64,000 nucleotides of DNA from Nodosilinea sp. WJT8-NPBG4 (GCA_019359285.1 JAHHHQ010000020.1:124001-188000); one strand, 5' to 3'. Positions 51,231-58,079 are shown, counted from the first letter of the stretch. Notes: a model not told the origin generated them from the letters alone. Program-made: numbers and translations.

Positions 51231-51445
51231 GGGTTTAGAAATTATGACTGCCTTAAATTGTAGGTTTAATTCACCGCTGAGCGGGGAAGAATTCCGAATA
51301 AAGGGTGGTTTAGTAACAGCGGTTACTTTCTAATGCTTGAGCAATTGCTAAGCCTATTAAGGCATCGACCTTGCTCCAACGCTAGTCAAAAATTAATCGA
51401 TTAATTAGCCATTCTAAATAGTCAAAAGTAAATACCCAAAAGTGT

Positions 51446-51576
51446 TTCTAGGGTTCCGGCTGACCGCCGCAGCGGTCAAGTGCCTGGTCCGAGAGGAACC
51501 GCCAGGTTGTCATCAGCCCTGCATGCAGCGGCCTAAGGTATCTGGTACACGGCGGGATAAAAGCCCGGGAGGATAG
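51446..51576 (+). promoter_or_regulatory. Guanidine-I riboswitch (ykkC-yxkD class)
   Basis: All conserved blocks of the class are present in order: TCTAGGGTTCCG at 51447-51458; a P2 hairpin TGACCGC/GCGGTCA at 51461-51477; CTGGTCCGAGAGG at 51484-51496; and ACACGGCGGGATAAAAGCCC continuing GGGAGG at 51547-51572. The spacing fits RF00442-type RNAs, which bind free guanidinium. The 3' block overlaps a terminator stem, so ligand binding should allow transcription into the glnT-like gene 105 bases downstream. Confidence 0.97.
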
Positions 51577-51616
51577 GCGTAGCATGGCTTCGTCATTCTC
51601 TCGGGCTGCTGTTTTT
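51562..51616 (+). terminator. Riboswitch expression-platform terminator
   Basis: The stem AGCCCGGGAGGAT (51562-51574) pairs with ATTCTCTCGGGCT (51595-51607) with two G-U pairs, followed by GCTGTTTTT. Its left arm is the last conserved strand of the aptamer, so the two structures exclude each other. This is the layout of an ON switch. Confidence 0.93.
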
Positions 51617-51681
51617 GATGCCATTTTTCTTAAATTGCCCTGCTCACGCATTCACCCACTGACTCGCTTACCTACCCACCT

Positions 51682-53043
51682 ATGGCCCATTCTCTAACGC
51701 CTGAAATCGAAGCGCTCAAAACATCCTTGGAGGCGAAGGGGGTCAAATACGCCCTGGCCAGCTATGTCGATATTCACGGCATGGGCAAGGCCAAAATGGT
51801 GCCCCTGGCTCACCTAGGCCAGATGATGGCGGGTTCAGAGCTGTTTACCGGCGCGGCCCTCGACGGGGTGCCCCAGGAGATCAGTGATGAAGAGGTGGCG
51901 GCGATGCCCGACCCGGCCTCGGCCACGGTGCTGCCCTGGAAGCCTGAGGTCGCCTGGTTCGCCAGCGATCTTTACCTGAAAGGGCAACCCTTCGAGGCCT
52001 GCTGTCGCACGATTCTCAAGCAAATGTTGGCCAAGGCGGCGGCAATGGGATTCACCTTTAACCTGGGCATTGAGACCGAGTTCTTCATGCTCAAAGAGCA
52101 CGCGGACGGTAGCTTTGGGCCGGTGAGCGATCGCGACCATCTGGCCAAGCCCTGCTACGACCTGCCCAGCTTGCTCGACAACGCCCCCTGGCTGAGCGAA
52201 CTGGTCGAGTACATGAACGATCTGGGCTGGGACGTGTACTCCTTTGACCACGAAGACGCCAATGGCCAGTTTGAGACCGACTTTGCCTACAGCGATGCCC
52301 TGACCATGGCTGACCGGCTCACCTTCTTTCGGCTGATGGTCAAGGAAATTGCCCGCAAGCACGGCTACTTTGCCAGCTTTATGCCCAAACCTTTTGGCGA
52401 TCGCACCGGCAGCGGTGCCCACTACAACCTGTCCTTAGCCGACATCCACACAGGGCAAAACCTGTTTGAAGACCCGGACGATCCACGCAGCTGCAAGCTG
52501 TCGAAGCTGGGCTACCAGTTTATTGCTGGGGTGCTGCGCCACGCCAAGGCGATCTGCGCCGTCACCTGCCCCACGGTCAACAGCTACAAGCGGCTGCTGC
52601 GCCAGGGCAGCATGTCGGGCTTTACCTGGGCCCCGGTCTACATCTGCTACGGCAACAACAACCGCACCAACATGCTGCGCATTCCCCTCGCGGGGGGCCG
52701 GGTCGAGTGCCGCGCCGCCGATATTGCCACCAACCCCTACCTGGGAGCCGCGATGATTCTGGCCGCCGGGCTAGAGGGCATTGCCGAGGGGCTCGACCCC
52801 GGTGAGCCCCACACCGAAAACATGTACAACTATTCCCTGGCCGACCTCCAGACGATGGCGATCGACATGCTGCCCCGCACGCTGCAAGAGGCGATCGACG
52901 CCTTTGAGGCCGACTCCCTGAGCCAGGCCGTGATGGGGCCGCTGATGTACCAGACCTACATCGACTTTCGCCGCCGGGAATGGGAGGAGTACCACACCCA
53001 CATTTCCGACTGGGAACTTAAGCGGTATCTGAAGTTCTTCTAG
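51682..53043 (+). CDS. glnT: Type III glutamate-ammonia ligase-like (GlnT) enzyme
   Basis: A 453-residue member of the glutamine synthetase superfamily, GlnT/type III branch (shorter than GlnN). Landmarks are YALASYVDIHGMGKAKMVPL, ETEFFMLKEH (metal Glu), FDHEDANGQFETDFAYSDAL, FMPKPFGDRTGSGAHYNLSL, TCPTVNSYKRL, and WAPVYICYGNNNRTNMLRIP, ECRAADIATNPYLGAA. Members join glutamate to ammonia or to amines (gamma-glutamyl-amide formation). It is the first gene after a guanidine-I riboswitch, which suggests an amine or guanidine-derived substrate and not housekeeping nitrogen assimilation. ATG start in a C-rich leader; the next gene follows by 90 bases. Confidence 0.92.
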   Translation: MAHSLTPEIEALKTSLEAKGVKYALASYVDIHGMGKAKMVPLAHLGQMMAGSELFTGAALDGVPQEISDEEVAAMPDPASATVLPWKPEVAWFASDLYLKGQPFEACCRTILKQMLAKAAAMGFTFNLGIETEFFMLKEHADGSFGPVSDRDHLAKPCYDLPSLLDNAPWLSELVEYMNDLGWDVYSFDHEDANGQFETDFAYSDALTMADRLTFFRLMVKEIARKHGYFASFMPKPFGDRTGSGAHYNLSLADIHTGQNLFEDPDDPRSCKLSKLGYQFIAGVLRHAKAICAVTCPTVNSYKRLLRQGSMSGFTWAPVYICYGNNNRTNMLRIPLAGGRVECRAADIATNPYLGAAMILAAGLEGIAEGLDPGEPHTENMYNYSLADLQTMAIDMLPRTLQEAIDAFEADSLSQAVMGPLMYQTYIDFRRREWEEYHTHISDWELKRYLKFF

Positions 53044-53133
53044 CGATCGCCTAGACGCATAGCTTTTACCCAGCGGCATCCAGATTGCCCCGCAGCTTTT
53101 CCTGTAGTTTTTGAGTCTCAACTATCCACTGCT

Positions 53134-54177
53134 ATGAAACGACGCACCTTTTTGCCCACGCTGTTTGCTTTCTTTTGCAGCCTATTGATTACCGTCAGCT
53201 GTGCCCAAACTACCCCCCAATCCGATACCCCCACCGATGCGTCTGCGCCCGCTACGACCGGGGAGCCCTTGAAGCTTGGCTATAGCAGCTGGGCGGGCTG
53301 GTGGCCCTGGGCGATCGCCGAAGAAGAGGGTCTATTCGAAAAGAATGGGGCCAATGTCGAGCTGATCTGGTTTGACGGCTACCTAGAATCAATCCAGTCC
53401 CTAGCCACCGGGCAGCTCGATGCCAACAGCCAAACTCTCAACGACACCATCTCCTTCGCGGGGGATGCCGTCAACGGCATGGTGGCGGTGCTGGTCAACG
53501 ACAACTCCGCCGGTAACGACAAGGTGATTGGGGCCGAGGGCATCGACACCGTCGCCGATCTGGCCGGCAAAACCGTCGCCCTAGAAGAGGGCGTAGTGGG
53601 CGACTTTTTGCTCAACCTGGCGTTGGAAGATGCGGGCCTAAGCCGAGTTGATGTGGAAATTAAGAATTTGGAAACCGGGGCTGCGGCCACGGCCTTTGCT
53701 GCAGGGCAAGTAGATGGCTTTGCGGGCTGGGTACCTTTCTGGGAAACGGCGCTTTCGCGTGAGGGCAGCAAAGAGCTGGCGACATCGAAGGATTACCCGG
53801 GCGCAATTCCTGACCTGCTGGTGGTAACCCAAAAGTTGATTGATAGCCGCCCCGACCAGGTGCAAGCCCTGGTGAATACCTGGTTCGACATTTTGGCCTT
53901 TATCGAAGAAAACCCTGACCGGGCCAACGAGATCATGGCGAAGCGTGCCAGCGTTAGCGACTCTGAGTTTGAGAAGTACACCGAGGGCACCAAAATCTTC
54001 ACCCTAGACGAAAACTTAGAAGCCTTTAGCGCAGGCGGTGACGACATGAAGTACATGCCCTACGCCTCTCAGGAAATGGCCGAATTTATGGTGGAGCTTA
54101 AGTTTATCCCCGAGGCCCCCGACCTAGAGGCCATTCTCGATGACCAATTTGTTAAGGCCTACACCGCCAAGAAGTAG
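53134..54177 (+). CDS. ABC transporter substrate-binding lipoprotein, NitT/TauT type
   Basis: A 347-residue solute-binding protein. The signal sequence ends in a lipobox LLITVSC with Cys23 as lipidation site. The mature part begins LKLGYSSWAGWWPWAIAEEEGLFEKNG, typical of NMT1/SsuA/TauA-type proteins, then ESIQSLATGQLDANSQTLNDTI and GKTVALEEGVVGDFLLNLAL. Several tryptophans near the start of the mature protein could form a cation-binding cage. It is 90 bases downstream of glnT-like and four bases before the permease region, so almost certainly in the riboswitch-controlled operon. The ligand is probably guanidine or a derivative (inference). Confidence 0.93.
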   Translation: MKRRTFLPTLFAFFCSLLITVSCAQTTPQSDTPTDASAPATTGEPLKLGYSSWAGWWPWAIAEEEGLFEKNGANVELIWFDGYLESIQSLATGQLDANSQTLNDTISFAGDAVNGMVAVLVNDNSAGNDKVIGAEGIDTVADLAGKTVALEEGVVGDFLLNLALEDAGLSRVDVEIKNLETGAAATAFAAGQVDGFAGWVPFWETALSREGSKELATSKDYPGAIPDLLVVTQKLIDSRPDQVQALVNTWFDILAFIEENPDRANEIMAKRASVSDSEFEKYTEGTKIFTLDENLEAFSAGGDDMKYMPYASQEMAEFMVELKFIPEAPDLEAILDDQFVKAYTAKK

Positions 54178-54261
54178 CCGTTGATGCAAGCCCCGATCGC
54201 CGTTCTGTGGATGATGGGGGCTAATACTTTTCAGGTTTGTTGTACGTTTGGGCTAACCCCT

Positions 54262-55104
54262 GTGACTCCCACTTCCCCTTCCTTTTCCACCGCGCCCACC
54301 GCCTCCCAGGGCATGAAGCCCAGTGTTTTTTGGCGACTGGCCGACGACATTCCCAAGCCGATGAGCACGGCGCTGATGGTGCTCTCCATTGCGGTGCCCT
54401 TTGCGATCTGGTGGTTGGTGGCCAGCCTCGACCTGGTGAATGATAAGTTTTTGCCGTCGCCGCTTCAGGTGGCCCAAGCCCTAGGACGGCTGTGGACGGA
54501 TGGCTTTCTGCTGGACGATACCGCCGCCAGCATCATGCGGGTGACGGTGGGCTTTGGGCTAGCGGCGCTAGTGTCGGTGCCCATCGGCATTGCCATGGGA
54601 GCCTTTGCCAGCGTGCGATCGCTGCTCGAACCGATCATTGGCGTGGTCCGCTACATGCCTCCCCCAGCCTTCATTCCCCTGCTAATCATTTATCTGGGTC
54701 TGGGAGAAGCACCTAAAATTGCCCTGATTTTCATGGGCACGGTGTTCTTCAACATCCTGATGATCATGGATGCAGTAAAGTTTGTGCCTAAGGCCCTGCT
54801 CGAAACCACTTATACCTTGGGTGGGCAGCGGAGGCAGGCGCTATTTCAAGTGATCACCCCCTACGTGCTGCCCAACATCATCGACACCTTCCGCATCAAC
54901 ATTGCCACCTCCTGGAGCCTGGTGGTAGTAGCGGAGCTGGTGGCGGCAGAAAACGGCCTCGGCAAGCGGATTGTGCTGGCCCAAAAGTTCTTCAACACCG
55001 ACGAAATCTTTGCCTGCCTGATCATTCTGGGTGTAATCGGCTTTGCCCTAGATTTGTCGCTTCGAGGGTTGATGAAAGCCACCTGCAAATGGGCGGTGAA
55101 TTAG
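54262..55104 (+). CDS. ABC transporter permease, SsuC/TauC type
   Basis: An inner-membrane permease with six helices and the coupling-loop motif (ETTYTLGGQRRQALFQVITPYVLPNIIDTFRINIATSWSLVVVAEL). VRYMPPPAFIPLLIIYLGLGEAPKIALIFMGT is characteristic of the NitT/TauT subfamily. The start is uncertain: the frame opens at 54181 directly after the binding-protein gene, with candidates ATG 54184, GTG 54262 and ATG 54313. I list the GTG, which gives a 280-residue product. It acts with the adjoining binding protein and ATPase. Confidence 0.92.
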   Translation: MTPTSPSFSTAPTASQGMKPSVFWRLADDIPKPMSTALMVLSIAVPFAIWWLVASLDLVNDKFLPSPLQVAQALGRLWTDGFLLDDTAASIMRVTVGFGLAALVSVPIGIAMGAFASVRSLLEPIIGVVRYMPPPAFIPLLIIYLGLGEAPKIALIFMGTVFFNILMIMDAVKFVPKALLETTYTLGGQRRQALFQVITPYVLPNIIDTFRINIATSWSLVVVAELVAAENGLGKRIVLAQKFFNTDEIFACLIILGVIGFALDLSLRGLMKATCKWAVN

Positions 55105-55130
55105 GCCGTCCATTGGTCTGTCGCATTGGT

Positions 55131-55153
55131 CTGGTGGGCAGTGCCCACCCTAC
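55131..55153. repeat. Dispersed palindromic repeat, copy 1
   Basis: A 23-base unit with core GGTGGGCAGTGCCCACC, identical to a second copy at 57251-57273. A C-rich, CCATCCACC-type low-complexity stretch follows it, up to the ATPase start. It lies inside the operon between permease and ATPase. Confidence 0.9.
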
Positions 55154-55211
55154 GGTACTCGCGCACCCTATCCACCCCCTTCACCCATCCACCCCCTACC
55201 CTCACCCCACC

Positions 55212-55985
55212 ATGCACTTAGAAATCAACAACCTCACCAAACAGTTCGACACCCGCCAGGGACCAGTGCTGGCGCTCGATGACATCAATATGCACGTAGA
55301 AACGGGCGAATTTGTCTGCGTGGTAGGGGCCTCGGGCTCCGGAAAATCTACGCTGCTGCGGCTAGTGGCGGGGCTAGATATGCCCACGGCGGGGGAAATG
55401 ACGGTGGATGGCCAAGTAGTGACGGGGCCAGGATCCGATCGCGGCATGATATTTCAGAGCTACACCCTATATCCCTGGATGTCGGTGCAGAAGAATGTGG
55501 AGTTTGGCCTCAAGCTCCAGGGCGTGGGGCCACGGGAGCGGCGAGAAATGGCCTCCTACTATTTAAATGTGGTGGGGCTGACCAAGTTTGCGCGATCGCT
55601 GCCCAAGCAGCTCTCGGGGGGTATGAAACAGCGGGTGGCGATCGCCCGCACCCTGGCCTCGCGGCCCAAAATTATGCTGATGGATGAGCCCTTTGGGGCT
55701 TTGGATGTGCAGACCAAGGAAACCATGCAGCAGTTCATGCTCGACCTGTGGAACCGCACCAGAGTCAGCATTTTGATGATCACCCACGATGTGGATGAGG
55801 CGGTGTTTCTATCCCAGCGCATTTATGTGCTGACGGCGCACCCCGGCACCATTCAGCGAGAGGTGTTTGTGAATTTACCCAGCGATCGCACCTATACCAT
55901 TCGCCGCGATCGGGCTTTTCAGGACTACCGCGAAGGCATCATGGATCTGCTGCGGGGAAAGACAACGCCGGCCTTGGTGAGCTGA
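55212..55985 (+). CDS. ABC transporter ATPase, SsuB/TauB/NrtD type
   Basis: A 257-residue ATP-binding subunit. Walker A GASGSGKSTLLRLVAGL, Q-loop FQSYTLYPW, signature LSGGMKQRVAIARTL, Walker B IMLMDEPFGALD and switch His in ITHDVDEAVFL are complete. The ATG at 55212 gives the normal N-terminus (LEINNLTKQF); the frame opens upstream within the permease end. With the binding protein and permease it forms a full importer of the nitrate/sulphonate/taurine family, under the guanidine riboswitch. Confidence 0.96.
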   Translation: MHLEINNLTKQFDTRQGPVLALDDINMHVETGEFVCVVGASGSGKSTLLRLVAGLDMPTAGEMTVDGQVVTGPGSDRGMIFQSYTLYPWMSVQKNVEFGLKLQGVGPRERREMASYYLNVVGLTKFARSLPKQLSGGMKQRVAIARTLASRPKIMLMDEPFGALDVQTKETMQQFMLDLWNRTRVSILMITHDVDEAVFLSQRIYVLTAHPGTIQREVFVNLPSDRTYTIRRDRAFQDYREGIMDLLRGKTTPALVS

Positions 55986-56001
55986 TAGGGAGTATCTAGC
56001 C

Positions 56002-57153
56002 ATGGTTTCTAGTCTGCCGCTGCAATGGTCAAAGACTGATCCCCAAGGGTCATCGCCGGTTCCCCCCGACGCTCACGGGCTGCCGGAACGATTTTTGCTC
56101 ACCGCCGACCACTACACCAATCCTCAGTGGCTCCCGATAGAGCAGCGGGCGATCTTTCGCCGCACCTGGCTCTATGTGGGCGATGGCGAACTTCTCCAGC
56201 CGGGGATGGTGTGGGCCAGGTCGGTAGGTGGGGCTCCCCTGCTGATTGTTCGAGATAATGGTGGCGAGCTGCGGGCCTTTTACAACCTCTGCCCCCACCG
56301 GGCTGCAATTTTGTCGCCTCAAGCAGGCATTCACCCCTGCCAAAAGCTGGTGTGCCCTTACCACGCCTGGGTTTATGACCTCTCGGGGAATTTGCTGGGG
56401 GTGCCTTCCCAAGATCAGTTTCCTCAGTCATTTGAAAAGCAAGAGTTTGCCCTGCGATCGCTGCGGTTAGAGACCTGGTCGGGCTTTATGTTCGTCTGCT
56501 TTGATGACAGTGCGCCGCCGCTAGTCGAGTTTCTAGGCAGCATCCCCCAGCACCTGGGGCAGCACCGCACCCTCGCCACCCAACCGCTGGCGGCCAAGCA
56601 GTACATCGTCGCCTGCAACTGGAAGAACTACCACGACAACACCCTGTGCGATTACCACGTGGCGATCGCCCACCGCACCACCCTCAACCAGGTGCAAGGC
56701 CCCATTCGCCACTACCAGCACCAACTCGAAACCTTCGTCAACTTGCTCTACACCCCCACCACCGCCGATTGGCAAGCCGAAAACCCCATCTTGCCAACCC
56801 TCCAGGGCCGCAGCCGCGAGGGATTTTTTACCTACGGTATCTACCCCAACCTGCACCTGCTGGGTCTGCCCAACGGCCTGTTGGCCTGGCTGCACATCGA
56901 GCCGCTCACCGCTGAGTCTTGCCAGGTTTCCTTAGAACTCTATGGTGACCCCGAATTTTGCCCGCCCAACGAAACCCTGCTGGCCGAGTTTGAAGCCTTT
57001 ATGCAAGAAGACATGGTACTCACCGAAAGCGTGCAGCAAGGCTACGCCAGCGGTGCCTACACCCCCGGCCCAGTGAATGGTTTAGAATCGCGGATCATTC
57101 ACCAGCAAAAGCTGATCTGGGATGCCCTTGCCGCCATTGGTGCAGCTGATTAG
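56002..57153 (+). CDS. Rieske mononuclear iron oxygenase, alpha subunit
   Basis: A 383-residue aromatic-ring-hydroxylase-type oxygenase. The Rieske centre ligands are Cys97/His99 (NLCPHRA) and Cys118/His121 (VCPYHAW). The mononuclear iron site is set by CNWKNYHDNTLCDYHVAIAH, with bridging Asp217, ligands His219 and His224, and probably Asp337 (FMQEDMVL). Sequence style is that of small-substrate members such as choline monooxygenase, CntA and GbcA rather than of naphthalene dioxygenases. No beta subunit or reductase adjoins, so it may use ferredoxin. It starts 16 bases after the ATPase gene, firmly in the operon. Likely role: hydroxylation or N-dealkylation of the imported compound (inference). 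Confidence 0.94.
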   Translation: MVSSLPLQWSKTDPQGSSPVPPDAHGLPERFLLTADHYTNPQWLPIEQRAIFRRTWLYVGDGELLQPGMVWARSVGGAPLLIVRDNGGELRAFYNLCPHRAAILSPQAGIHPCQKLVCPYHAWVYDLSGNLLGVPSQDQFPQSFEKQEFALRSLRLETWSGFMFVCFDDSAPPLVEFLGSIPQHLGQHRTLATQPLAAKQYIVACNWKNYHDNTLCDYHVAIAHRTTLNQVQGPIRHYQHQLETFVNLLYTPTTADWQAENPILPTLQGRSREGFFTYGIYPNLHLLGLPNGLLAWLHIEPLTAESCQVSLELYGDPEFCPPNETLLAEFEAFMQEDMVLTESVQQGYASGAYTPGPVNGLESRIIHQQKLIWDALAAIGAAD

Positions 57154-57250
57154 CGGTATAAATTGATGCCGAGCAAACACCGTAAAGCCTCTGGCTTGGC
57201 TTTGCCTATGCCCCTACGCAAAACCCCGGTTGTATAGCGCTAGGGTAACG

Positions 57251-57273
57251 CTGGTGGGCAGTGCCCACCCTAC
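57251..57273. repeat. Dispersed palindromic repeat, copy 2
   Basis: Identical over 23 bases to the unit at 55131-55153, again followed by a CCATCCACC-type C-rich stretch that runs to the next gene start. Confidence 0.9.
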
Positions 57274-57320
57274 CCATCCACCCACCTACCCATCCACCCG
57301 CCTACCCCATCCACCCCTCC

Positions 57321-58079
57321 ATGCCCCTCAACCCCTTCCTCGGCGTCTGGCAACGCCGCTCCATTCAGTTTGACCAAGGCCCCATTGAAACCAGCCAATC
57401 CGTCCTGTGGATTCAGGCCGAAACCTACTTTGCCGATGTGCGTAGCACTCCCTTTGCGGGACGGCTGACGTCGGAGCGGTACCGGGCAATGGACTGGCGA
57501 TCGCGCTTCGATGCCGACCTGCTGGGCTTTGCCGGCACCTTTAGCTGGTCTGAGGTCCCCCCGACCTGCACCTGGCACCATCGCCTTGCCCTTACACCCC
57601 GCCACTGGCCCGACACCAGCAACTATCAATGGCTGGGGCCAGACGACTTTTTAGAGCAGGGCACTTGTGAAGATGACGAGGGTGGTCTCCACCCCTTTGT
57701 TGAGCACTGGTATCGCATTCACCCTGGCCCTGTGCAGATGTGGCGTCTGGACCGGGCCGCTCACCAGGGGCAGGCCCTCAGGGTGGGCAACTGGGCCGTC
57801 TTAGTGCACCAGTGGCGTTCGCAAAGCGTCTCCAGTGGAGAATTACAAAGCGTCTCTAGTCAAGAATCGTCCACCGCAGACCCCTGGGAGGCGGAGAGCT
57901 GGCGTGCGTTTTCTGCCACCGCCTGGGAGTATCGGGAGGGCACCTGGCAGGCTCTGTTTGGCACTGACGCCAGCCTGGGCACCCCACCTCGTTGGACGCC
58001 GCTGGATTTAGATGACCCGCTCGGCCTGTGGCAGCTGGAGCGCTCGGCCCCAGTGAGCCGGAGCCTAGAGCTTAACTAA
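57321..58079 (+). CDS. Beta-rich protein of unknown function in the guanidine locus
   Basis: A 252-residue protein rich in Trp, with alternating short strands that suggest a lipocalin-like or calycin barrel: FLGVWQRRSIQFDQG, SVLWIQAETYFADVRS, FAGTFSWSEVPPTCTWHHRL, VEHWYRIHPGPVQMWRLDR, LRVGNWAVLVHQWRS. No enzyme motif recognised. A short DNA repeat (two CAAAGCGTCTC words) is inserted in frame at residues 172-187 and encodes SVSSGELQSVSSQE. The ATG follows the second copy of the dispersed repeat. It is 167 bases after the oxygenase and probably the last gene of the operon. Confidence 0.75.
   Translation: MPLNPFLGVWQRRSIQFDQGPIETSQSVLWIQAETYFADVRSTPFAGRLTSERYRAMDWRSRFDADLLGFAGTFSWSEVPPTCTWHHRLALTPRHWPDTSNYQWLGPDDFLEQGTCEDDEGGLHPFVEHWYRIHPGPVQMWRLDRAAHQGQALRVGNWAVLVHQWRSQSVSSGELQSVSSQESSTADPWEAESWRAFSATAWEYREGTWQALFGTDASLGTPPRWTPLDLDDPLGLWQLERSAPVSRSLELN

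What the first reader, a model, noticed from the sequence alone, without database searches (positions are those of the whole stretch)
51446..58079. Guanidine-I riboswitch in front of a GlnT-ABC importer-Rieske oxygenase operon
A near-perfect guanidine-I aptamer precedes, on one strand, a type III glutamine synthetase-like ligase, a complete NitT/TauT-type importer, a Rieske mononuclear iron oxygenase and a beta-rich unknown protein. Known class members control guanidine exporters, guanidine carboxylase/urea pathways, or the Ni guanidine hydrolase with its importer. None of those enzymes is present here, so this looks like a different guanidine or alkylguanidine route: import, oxidation or N-dealkylation, and gamma-glutamylation of a released amine. 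Riboswitch and families are seen; the pathway is hypothesis.
Basis: partly seen in the sequence, partly recalled or inferred. Interest (0 to 1): 0.88.

Follow-up and report, generated by a model that had tools for sequence, protein, structure and literature searches.

The report
Split guanidine-use operon in cyanobacterium
A guanidine-sensing RNA switch controls the import and side-enzyme half of a cyanobacterium's guanidine-eating system; the known guanidine-splitting enzyme sits elsewhere in the same genome behind its own switch, so this is not a separate new route, but two of its enzymes (a glutamate ligase and an iron oxygenase) still have no known job.

Summary
A guanidine-I aptamer (RF00442, 70.2 bits, window 51437-51573) precedes a type III glutamine-synthetase-like ligase, a NitT/TauT-type importer, a Rieske oxygenase and a beta-rich protein, all on one strand. 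A strong terminator hairpin overlaps the aptamer's last helix, so guanidine should switch the operon on.

The claim that this is a different guanidine route, because no known guanidine enzyme is present, is not supported. The same genome has gdmH-hypA-hypB (Ni guanidine hydrolase and its nickel chaperones) behind its own guanidine-I riboswitch, plus urease. All 14 searched genomes with the window-type arrangement have that second operon. In about a dozen relatives the pieces sit in one operon (gdmH, hypA, ligase, hypB, importer, some with Rieske). A congener carries gdmH-hypA-hypB-importer-Rieske-beta protein at the same chromosomal site. The window therefore holds the import/accessory arm of a split guanidine-hydrolase regulon.

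Still open: the ligase and the Rieske protein. The ligase is a distinct clade, not GmaS, and recurs in riboswitch loci with hydrolase or carboxylase genes. I found no report of it in the papers I could search. A Rieske gene in marine Synechococcus guanidinase operons is already published.

The parts
51437..51573 (+). guanidine-I (ykkC-yxkD subtype 1) riboswitch aptamer
   Evidence: RF00442 70.2 bits, E 2e-10; intact invariant core in a 25-sequence alignment
51560..51616 (+). expression platform: intrinsic terminator whose 5' arm (GCCCGGGAG) is the 3' arm of the aptamer's last helix, followed by TTTTT
   Evidence: -30.7 kcal/mol, z -4.47 against shuffles; comparable terminators in most orthologous cyanobacterial leaders
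51682..53043 (+). type III glutamine synthetase-like ligase (called GSIII-A here)
   Evidence: TIGR03105 588 bits; PDB 9qur E 1.9e-126, 7cql E 7.5e-104; tree
53134..54177 (+). NitT/TauT (SsuA-family) substrate-binding lipoprotein
   Evidence: TIGR01728 273 bits, NMT1_2; PDB relatives 3e4r, 2x26
54181..55104 (+). TauC/SsuC-like ABC permease (true start probably internal)
   Evidence: BPD_transp_1 E 8.5e-24
55212..55985 (+). TauB/NrtD-like ABC ATPase
   Evidence: ABC_tran E 9.4e-32; ORF runs from 55089, likely start ATG 55212
56002..57153 (+). Rieske mononuclear iron oxygenase, carnitine/glycine-betaine monooxygenase-like
   Evidence: Rieske and Ring_hydroxyl_A; PDB 6y9c E 2e-32; CxH/CxxH cluster ligands and DxxxDYHxxxxH + ED motif conserved
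57321..58079 (+). beta-rich protein of unknown function; orthologues seen only behind this Rieske gene in Nodosilinea-like genomes
   Evidence: no Pfam family; loci; low-confidence model and weak hit to yeast Hri1

Best explanation
This is the import and accessory arm of a two-operon guanidine-utilisation regulon built around the known Ni-dependent guanidine hydrolase GdmH. Guanidine entering the cell binds the guanidine-I aptamer, stabilises its last helix and blocks the overlapping terminator, so the operon is transcribed. The ABC importer brings in guanidine (or a close relative). GdmH, with its chaperones HypA and HypB encoded elsewhere behind a second guanidine-I riboswitch, splits guanidine to urea and ammonia, and urease splits urea. 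The arrangement most likely arose when an ancestral gdmH-hypA-(ligase)-hypB-importer-Rieske operon was split. SHOWN by sequence: riboswitch, terminator, gene content, second riboswitch-gdmH operon, urease, integrated operons in relatives. FROM LITERATURE: GdmH activity, and raised expression of the homologous Synechocystis operon when guanidine is made. INFERRED: that this riboswitch works as an ON switch, that the importer carries guanidine, and the fission. HYPOTHESIS: the Rieske oxygenase N-dealkylates alkylguanidines to guanidine (about 0.45). The ligase joins glutamate to a small nitrogen nucleophile in this pathway; ammonia (about 0.4) and an amine or guanidinium compound (about 0.5) cannot be separated here.
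For: The own genome has three RF00442 copies: this one, one 109 bp before gdmH, and a third. gdmH-hypA-hypB at C41:91016-93424; urease alpha 991 bits. In relatives, 14 of 14 genomes with the riboswitch 85-175 bp before the ligase also have gdmH 105-115 bp behind another guanidine-I riboswitch. One-operon forms gdmH-hypA-ligase-hypB-SBP-permease-ATPase in L126-L128, L130-L132, L067, L072, L073, with Rieske in L067 and L132, and gdmH-hypA-hypB-ligase-importer-Rieske in three Cyanobium genomes. A congener (L078) has riboswitch-gdmH-hypA-hypB-importer-Rieske-beta protein at the same cobQ flank as the window. The ligase tree puts the window type beside the gdmH-operon type (SH-aLRT 88; window-type clade 98). 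Terminator. Raised expression of the Synechocystis gdmH operon with its ABC genes in guanidine-producing strains: PMC8390497; import and hydrolysis reviewed in PMC12186494.
Against: No expression or biochemical data for this organism. The importer's ligand is inferred from context. The ligase clade also occurs without a guanidine riboswitch (Actinobacteria beside an ammonium transporter; cyanobacteria beside a glutamine amidotransferase), so its chemistry need not be guanidine-specific. gdmH occurs without this ligase in some genomes (G005, G016). The split direction rests on an 88% branch and shared flanks.
Confidence: 0.85

Rival explanations
1. One reading: an independent alkylguanidine route in which the importer takes up an alkylguanidine, the Rieske enzyme oxidises or N-dealkylates it, and the ligase gamma-glutamylates the released amine, without guanidine hydrolase.
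For: Rieske nearest to carnitine/betaine monooxygenases; ligase lacks the GS Glu-flap glutamate (Trp316) as GmaS does; MgdH/MgdL precedent for methylguanidine dealkylation under a guanidine riboswitch (PMC12508155).
Against: gdmH-hypA-hypB is present in the genome under its own riboswitch and co-occurs 14 of 14; integrated operons contain all parts. As an accessory step feeding guanidine to GdmH it remains possible; as a replacement route it is not supported.
Confidence: 0.07
2. Sub-question, compatible with the best explanation: the ligase is simply an ammonia-using glutamine synthetase that captures the ammonia released from guanidine.
For: Named TIGR03105 type III glutamate-ammonia ligase above cut-off. 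Found in riboswitch loci with GdmH, in one riboswitch-importer operon with UAAP1 (L166) and beside a urea/guanidine carboxylase in Marinobacter; ammonia release is common to these routes. Actinobacterial orthologues lie beside Amt transporters.
Against: The catalytic Glu of the Glu flap is Trp316, and the Asp50' position is Thr56 in the HMMER alignment and by register with RhGmaS Ala48' (a MAFFT alignment places GlnA's Asp at D61 instead). The genome already has a canonical GlnA.
Confidence: 0.4
3. Sub-question: the ligase is a gamma-glutamylmethylamide synthetase (GmaS) for methylamine.
For: Nearest solved structures are 9qur and 7cql, both methylamine ligases; Lys30', Tyr147, Asp177, Glu179 and Glu186 of RhGmaS are conserved.
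Against: Separate clade, SH-aLRT 100, from 9qur and from the GmaS homologue that sits in a glutamate-synthase/sarcosine-oxidase-like cluster of G041. RhGmaS pocket Gln175 is Ser and Asn188 is Asp in 82 of 82 members.
Confidence: 0.1
4. The riboswitch is decayed or misassigned and the operon serves another nitrogen or sulfur source such as taurine or a sulfonate.
For: Importer families score with sulfonate/taurine models.
Against: Aptamer core intact, terminator conserved, and 14 genomes keep it 85-175 bp upstream. The importers of gdmH operons are of the same family.
Confidence: 0.03

Closest known systems
Synechocystis sp. PCC 6803 gdmH operon sll1077-sll1082 (guanidine hydrolase, HypA/HypB-type chaperones, NitT/TauT importer) under a guanidine-I riboswitch
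   Same: same riboswitch class, same importer type; GdmH, HypA and HypB orthologues present in the genome under a second riboswitch
   Different: gdmH-hypA-hypB lie at a separate riboswitch-controlled locus; extra ligase, Rieske oxygenase and beta-rich protein
marine Synechococcus/Cyanobium guanidinase cluster with downstream Rieske gene CK_00002251 (PMC10119275)
   Same: guanidine riboswitch, importer and a Rieske protein; the Cyanobium loci seen here also have the ligase
   Different: gdmH and hypAB in the same operon; the passages of that paper read here do not mention the ligase
gamma-glutamylmethylamide synthetase GmaS (PDB 7cql, 9qur)
   Same: GS fold by sequence; Trp in the Glu flap; conserved Lys30', Tyr147, Asp177, Glu179, Glu186
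   Different: separate clade; invariant Ser187 and Asp200 in place of RhGmaS Gln175 and Asn188; no N-methylglutamate genes beside it
Vreelandella methylguanidine demethylation genes mgdH/mgdL (PMC12508155)
   Same: an oxygenase gene added to a guanidine-riboswitch operon with an importer
   Different: 2-oxoglutarate dioxygenase plus lyase with the carboxylase pathway, against a Rieske oxygenase with the hydrolase pathway; activity here untested

Membership tests
guanidine-I riboswitch (RF00442) | covariance-model score above the curated gathering score, with intact conserved core | tested here: met
   70.2 against 63 bits; invariant columns
guanidine-I riboswitch (RF00442) | overlapping expression platform | tested here: met
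   terminator overlapping the last helix, z -4.47
guanidine-I riboswitch (RF00442) | binds guanidinium | not testable with these tools
   needs in-line probing
GdmH guanidine-hydrolase regulon | gdmH plus hypA/hypB under a guanidine riboswitch in the same genome | tested here: met
   C41 locus, riboswitch 109 bp upstream of gdmH
GdmH guanidine-hydrolase regulon | gdmH inside the operon in question | tested here: not met
   no gdmH in window 50.7-58.3 kb; it is at C41
GdmH guanidine-hydrolase regulon | NitT/TauT-type importer under a guanidine riboswitch | tested here: met
   same importer family in gdmH operons of relatives
GmaS (methylamine ligase) | clusters with characterised GmaS | tested here: not met
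   own clade, 100% SH-aLRT
GmaS (methylamine ligase) | RhGmaS methylamine pocket residues | tested here: not met
   5 of 7 kept; Gln175 to Ser and Asn188 to Asp in 82 of 82
ammonia-using glutamine synthetase | Glu-flap glutamate | tested here: not met
   Trp316
ammonia-using glutamine synthetase | Asp50' residue | tested here: inconclusive
   Thr56 by HMMER and by register with RhGmaS; D61 in a MAFFT alignment
Rieske non-haem iron oxygenase | CxH...CxxH cluster ligands and His-His-carboxylate iron site | tested here: met
   CPHR/CPYH and DxxxDYHxxxxH + ED, conserved in orthologues
guanidine carboxylase pathway | carboxylase and carboxyguanidine deiminase in the operon | tested here: not met
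   absent from the operon; not searched genome-wide

The most novel reading that the evidence does not exclude
The GSIII-A ligase, with its invariant extra acidic pocket residue (Asp200) and Ser187, is a new guanidinium- or alkylguanidine-directed gamma-glutamyl ligase. Together with a Rieske N-dealkylase it forms an undescribed enzymatic branch attached to both the hydrolase and the carboxylase guanidine pathways, selected repeatedly into guanidine-riboswitch loci in cyanobacteria and proteobacteria.
Probability: 0.25. Interest if true: 0.75.

Novelty: new variant of a known kind. Interest (0 to 1): 0.5.

Why it matters
It turns an apparent new pathway into a clear case of a riboswitch regulon split over two loci, each with its own copy of the switch. 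It also narrows the real open question to two named enzymes: a widespread ligase clade and a Rieske oxygenase that travel with guanidine riboswitches but have no assigned reaction. If either acts on guanidine or alkylguanidines, it would help answer where natural guanidine comes from and how its nitrogen is assimilated. The Cyanobium and marine Synechococcus versions make it relevant to aquatic nitrogen cycling.

Tried and rejected
A GmaS assignment was considered and rejected on clade and pocket residues. A replacement route without gdmH was rejected after the genome searches. The beta-rich protein: AlphaFold2 model poor (mean pLDDT 54.5); best Foldseek hit yeast YLR301w (Hri1, name from memory) at E 0.043, TM 0.24, not usable as evidence. 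The repeat GGTGGGCAGTGCCCACCCTAC in the two longest gaps of the operon looked regulatory but is a genome-wide repeat, 71 copies at up to one mismatch. sigma-70 promoter and generic terminator scans were no better than shuffles. Literature: no held paper found that links a guanidine riboswitch to glutamine synthetase III or GlnT. Nelson 2017, Funck 2022, Sinn 2021 and Itzenhauser 2025 are not held, so an earlier mention there cannot be excluded.

Full report
OBSERVATION. One RF00442 guanidine-I aptamer lies at window 51437-51573 (+), 70.2 bits, the only Rfam family in the window at its gathering score. It is followed on the same strand by a TIGR03105 ligase, an SsuA-family binding protein, a TauC-like permease, a TauB-like ATPase, a Rieske oxygenase and a protein without family. 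The sequence AAAAGCCCGGGAG, the 3' side of the aptamer, can pair with CTCTCGGGCT a short way downstream, which is followed by TTTTT. This hairpin folds at -30.7 kcal/mol, z -4.47, and equivalent hairpins follow most orthologous cyanobacterial aptamers. By established guanidine-I logic (inference) guanidine prevents termination: an ON switch.

THE MISSING ENZYMES ARE NOT MISSING. The own genome (5.9 Mb, 99.97% complete) has three guanidine-I riboswitches. One stands 109 bp before a gene that I identify as gdmH, from its sequence and its 84-91% identity to the gdmH of riboswitch-hypA-hypB-importer operons in relatives. It is followed by hypA and hypB (76-77% identical to those of a congener's gdmH operon). 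A urease alpha gene is present. So guanidine can be taken through the known route: guanidine to urea and ammonia (GdmH), then urea to ammonia and CO2 (urease), as reviewed in PMC12186494.

RELATIVES. Among the genomes searched, 14 (the own one included) have the riboswitch 85-175 bp before the ligase; all 14 have gdmH 105-115 bp behind a second guanidine-I riboswitch. In other Leptolyngbya- and Halomicronema-like genomes the parts are one operon: gdmH-hypA-ligase-hypB-SBP-permease-ATPase, with a riboswitch in front in most and twice with Rieske behind. Three Cyanobium genomes carry riboswitch-gdmH-hypA-hypB-ligase-SBP-permease-ATPase-Rieske. A congener (L078) has riboswitch-gdmH-hypA-hypB-SBP-permease-ATPase-Rieske-beta protein at the same cobQ flank as the window, without the ligase. 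In the ligase tree the window type is one clade (98) beside the gdmH-operon type (88). The simplest history is fission of an integrated operon, each half keeping or gaining a riboswitch; the direction is an inference.

THE LIGASE. 82 orthologues share the same marker residues, and the clade (76 rows in the tree, SH-aLRT 100) stands apart from GmaS 9qur, from 7cql and from the GmaS homologue in a glutamate-synthase/sarcosine-oxidase-like cluster of G041. Relative to RhGmaS (PMC7948447) it keeps Lys30', Tyr147, Asp177, Glu179, Glu186 and the flap Trp (W316), but Gln175 is Ser187 and Asn188 is Asp200 in 82 of 82. The Glu-flap glutamate of true glutamine synthetases is absent. The Asp50' position is Thr56 in the HMMER alignment and by register with RhGmaS Ala48', while MAFFT aligned GlnA's Asp with D61, so that point is not settled. 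The ligase is found near guanidine riboswitches also in Rhodocyclaceae (L166: riboswitch-SBP-permease-ATPase-ligase-UAAP1), in Marinobacter (divergent from a riboswitch-importer unit, with a urea/guanidine carboxylase nearby) and in another cyanobacterial type with MBL-fold and creatininase-family genes. It therefore goes with both degradation routes, which fits an ammonia- or guanidine-related role. In Actinobacteria, without a riboswitch, it lies near an ammonium transporter. Its substrate cannot be decided here.

THE RIESKE PROTEIN. Cluster and iron-site motifs are intact and conserved. The nearest solved relative is carnitine monooxygenase (6y9c, E 2e-32), and the best NCBIfam model is glycine betaine monooxygenase, far below cut-off. 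Guanidinase made no detectable urea from methylguanidine-type compounds in the comammox study, and the riboswitch is described there as not recognising other guanidino compounds (PMC11410670). Vreelandella dealkylates methylguanidine with a different oxygenase (PMC12508155). N-dealkylation of an alkylguanidine to guanidine is thus a reasonable but untested role. The association of a Rieske gene with guanidinase clusters in marine Synechococcus is published (PMC10119275).

NOVELTY. The system is a variant of the known GdmH regulon. What I did not find described in the searchable open-access papers is the recurrent ligase; several founding papers could not be read, so this is absence of evidence only.

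Noticed in passing
L005 8402-10847 (own genome C55:28401-30846, minus strand): Third guanidine-I riboswitch of the genome, before an MBL-fold hydrolase and a BMP/PnrA-family binding protein: unusual partners for this riboswitch class.
   Followed up: partly
L066 2387-8771; L136, L139, L146, L148, L151: Guanidine-I riboswitch loci with importer ATPase-SBP ahead of the ligase, plus an MBL-fold and/or creatininase-family gene in several; Rieske or isochorismatase genes occur in related loci. Creatininase-family enzymes in a guanidine regulon are a lead of their own.
   Followed up: partly
L132 9693-10691, L067 3727-4725, L196 11325-12326, L169 8783-9838, L172 11342-12337: An alpha/beta hydrolase (PRK07581/MetX-like where tested) recurs beside the ligase or Rieske gene in different phyla.
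   Followed up: no
window 55133-55153 and 57253-57273: Near-palindromic repeat GGTGGGCAGTGCCCACCCTAC in both long intergenic gaps of the operon; 71 copies (up to one mismatch) in the genome, a dispersed repeat.
   Followed up: yes
L066 10450-18994: Beside the guanidine loci of G041 lies a glutamate-synthase-domain, glutamine amidotransferase-type, GmaS-like and sarcosine-oxidase-alpha-like gene cluster, possibly an N-methylglutamate pathway.
   Followed up: no
G031:C709:4816-5385, G041:C2:222026-222512, G016:C1:2692193-2692776, G006:C474:40-765: Pairs of divergent, back-to-back guanidine-I riboswitches within about 750 bp; in G041 one reads into gdmH and the other into the importer-ligase operon.
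   Followed up: no
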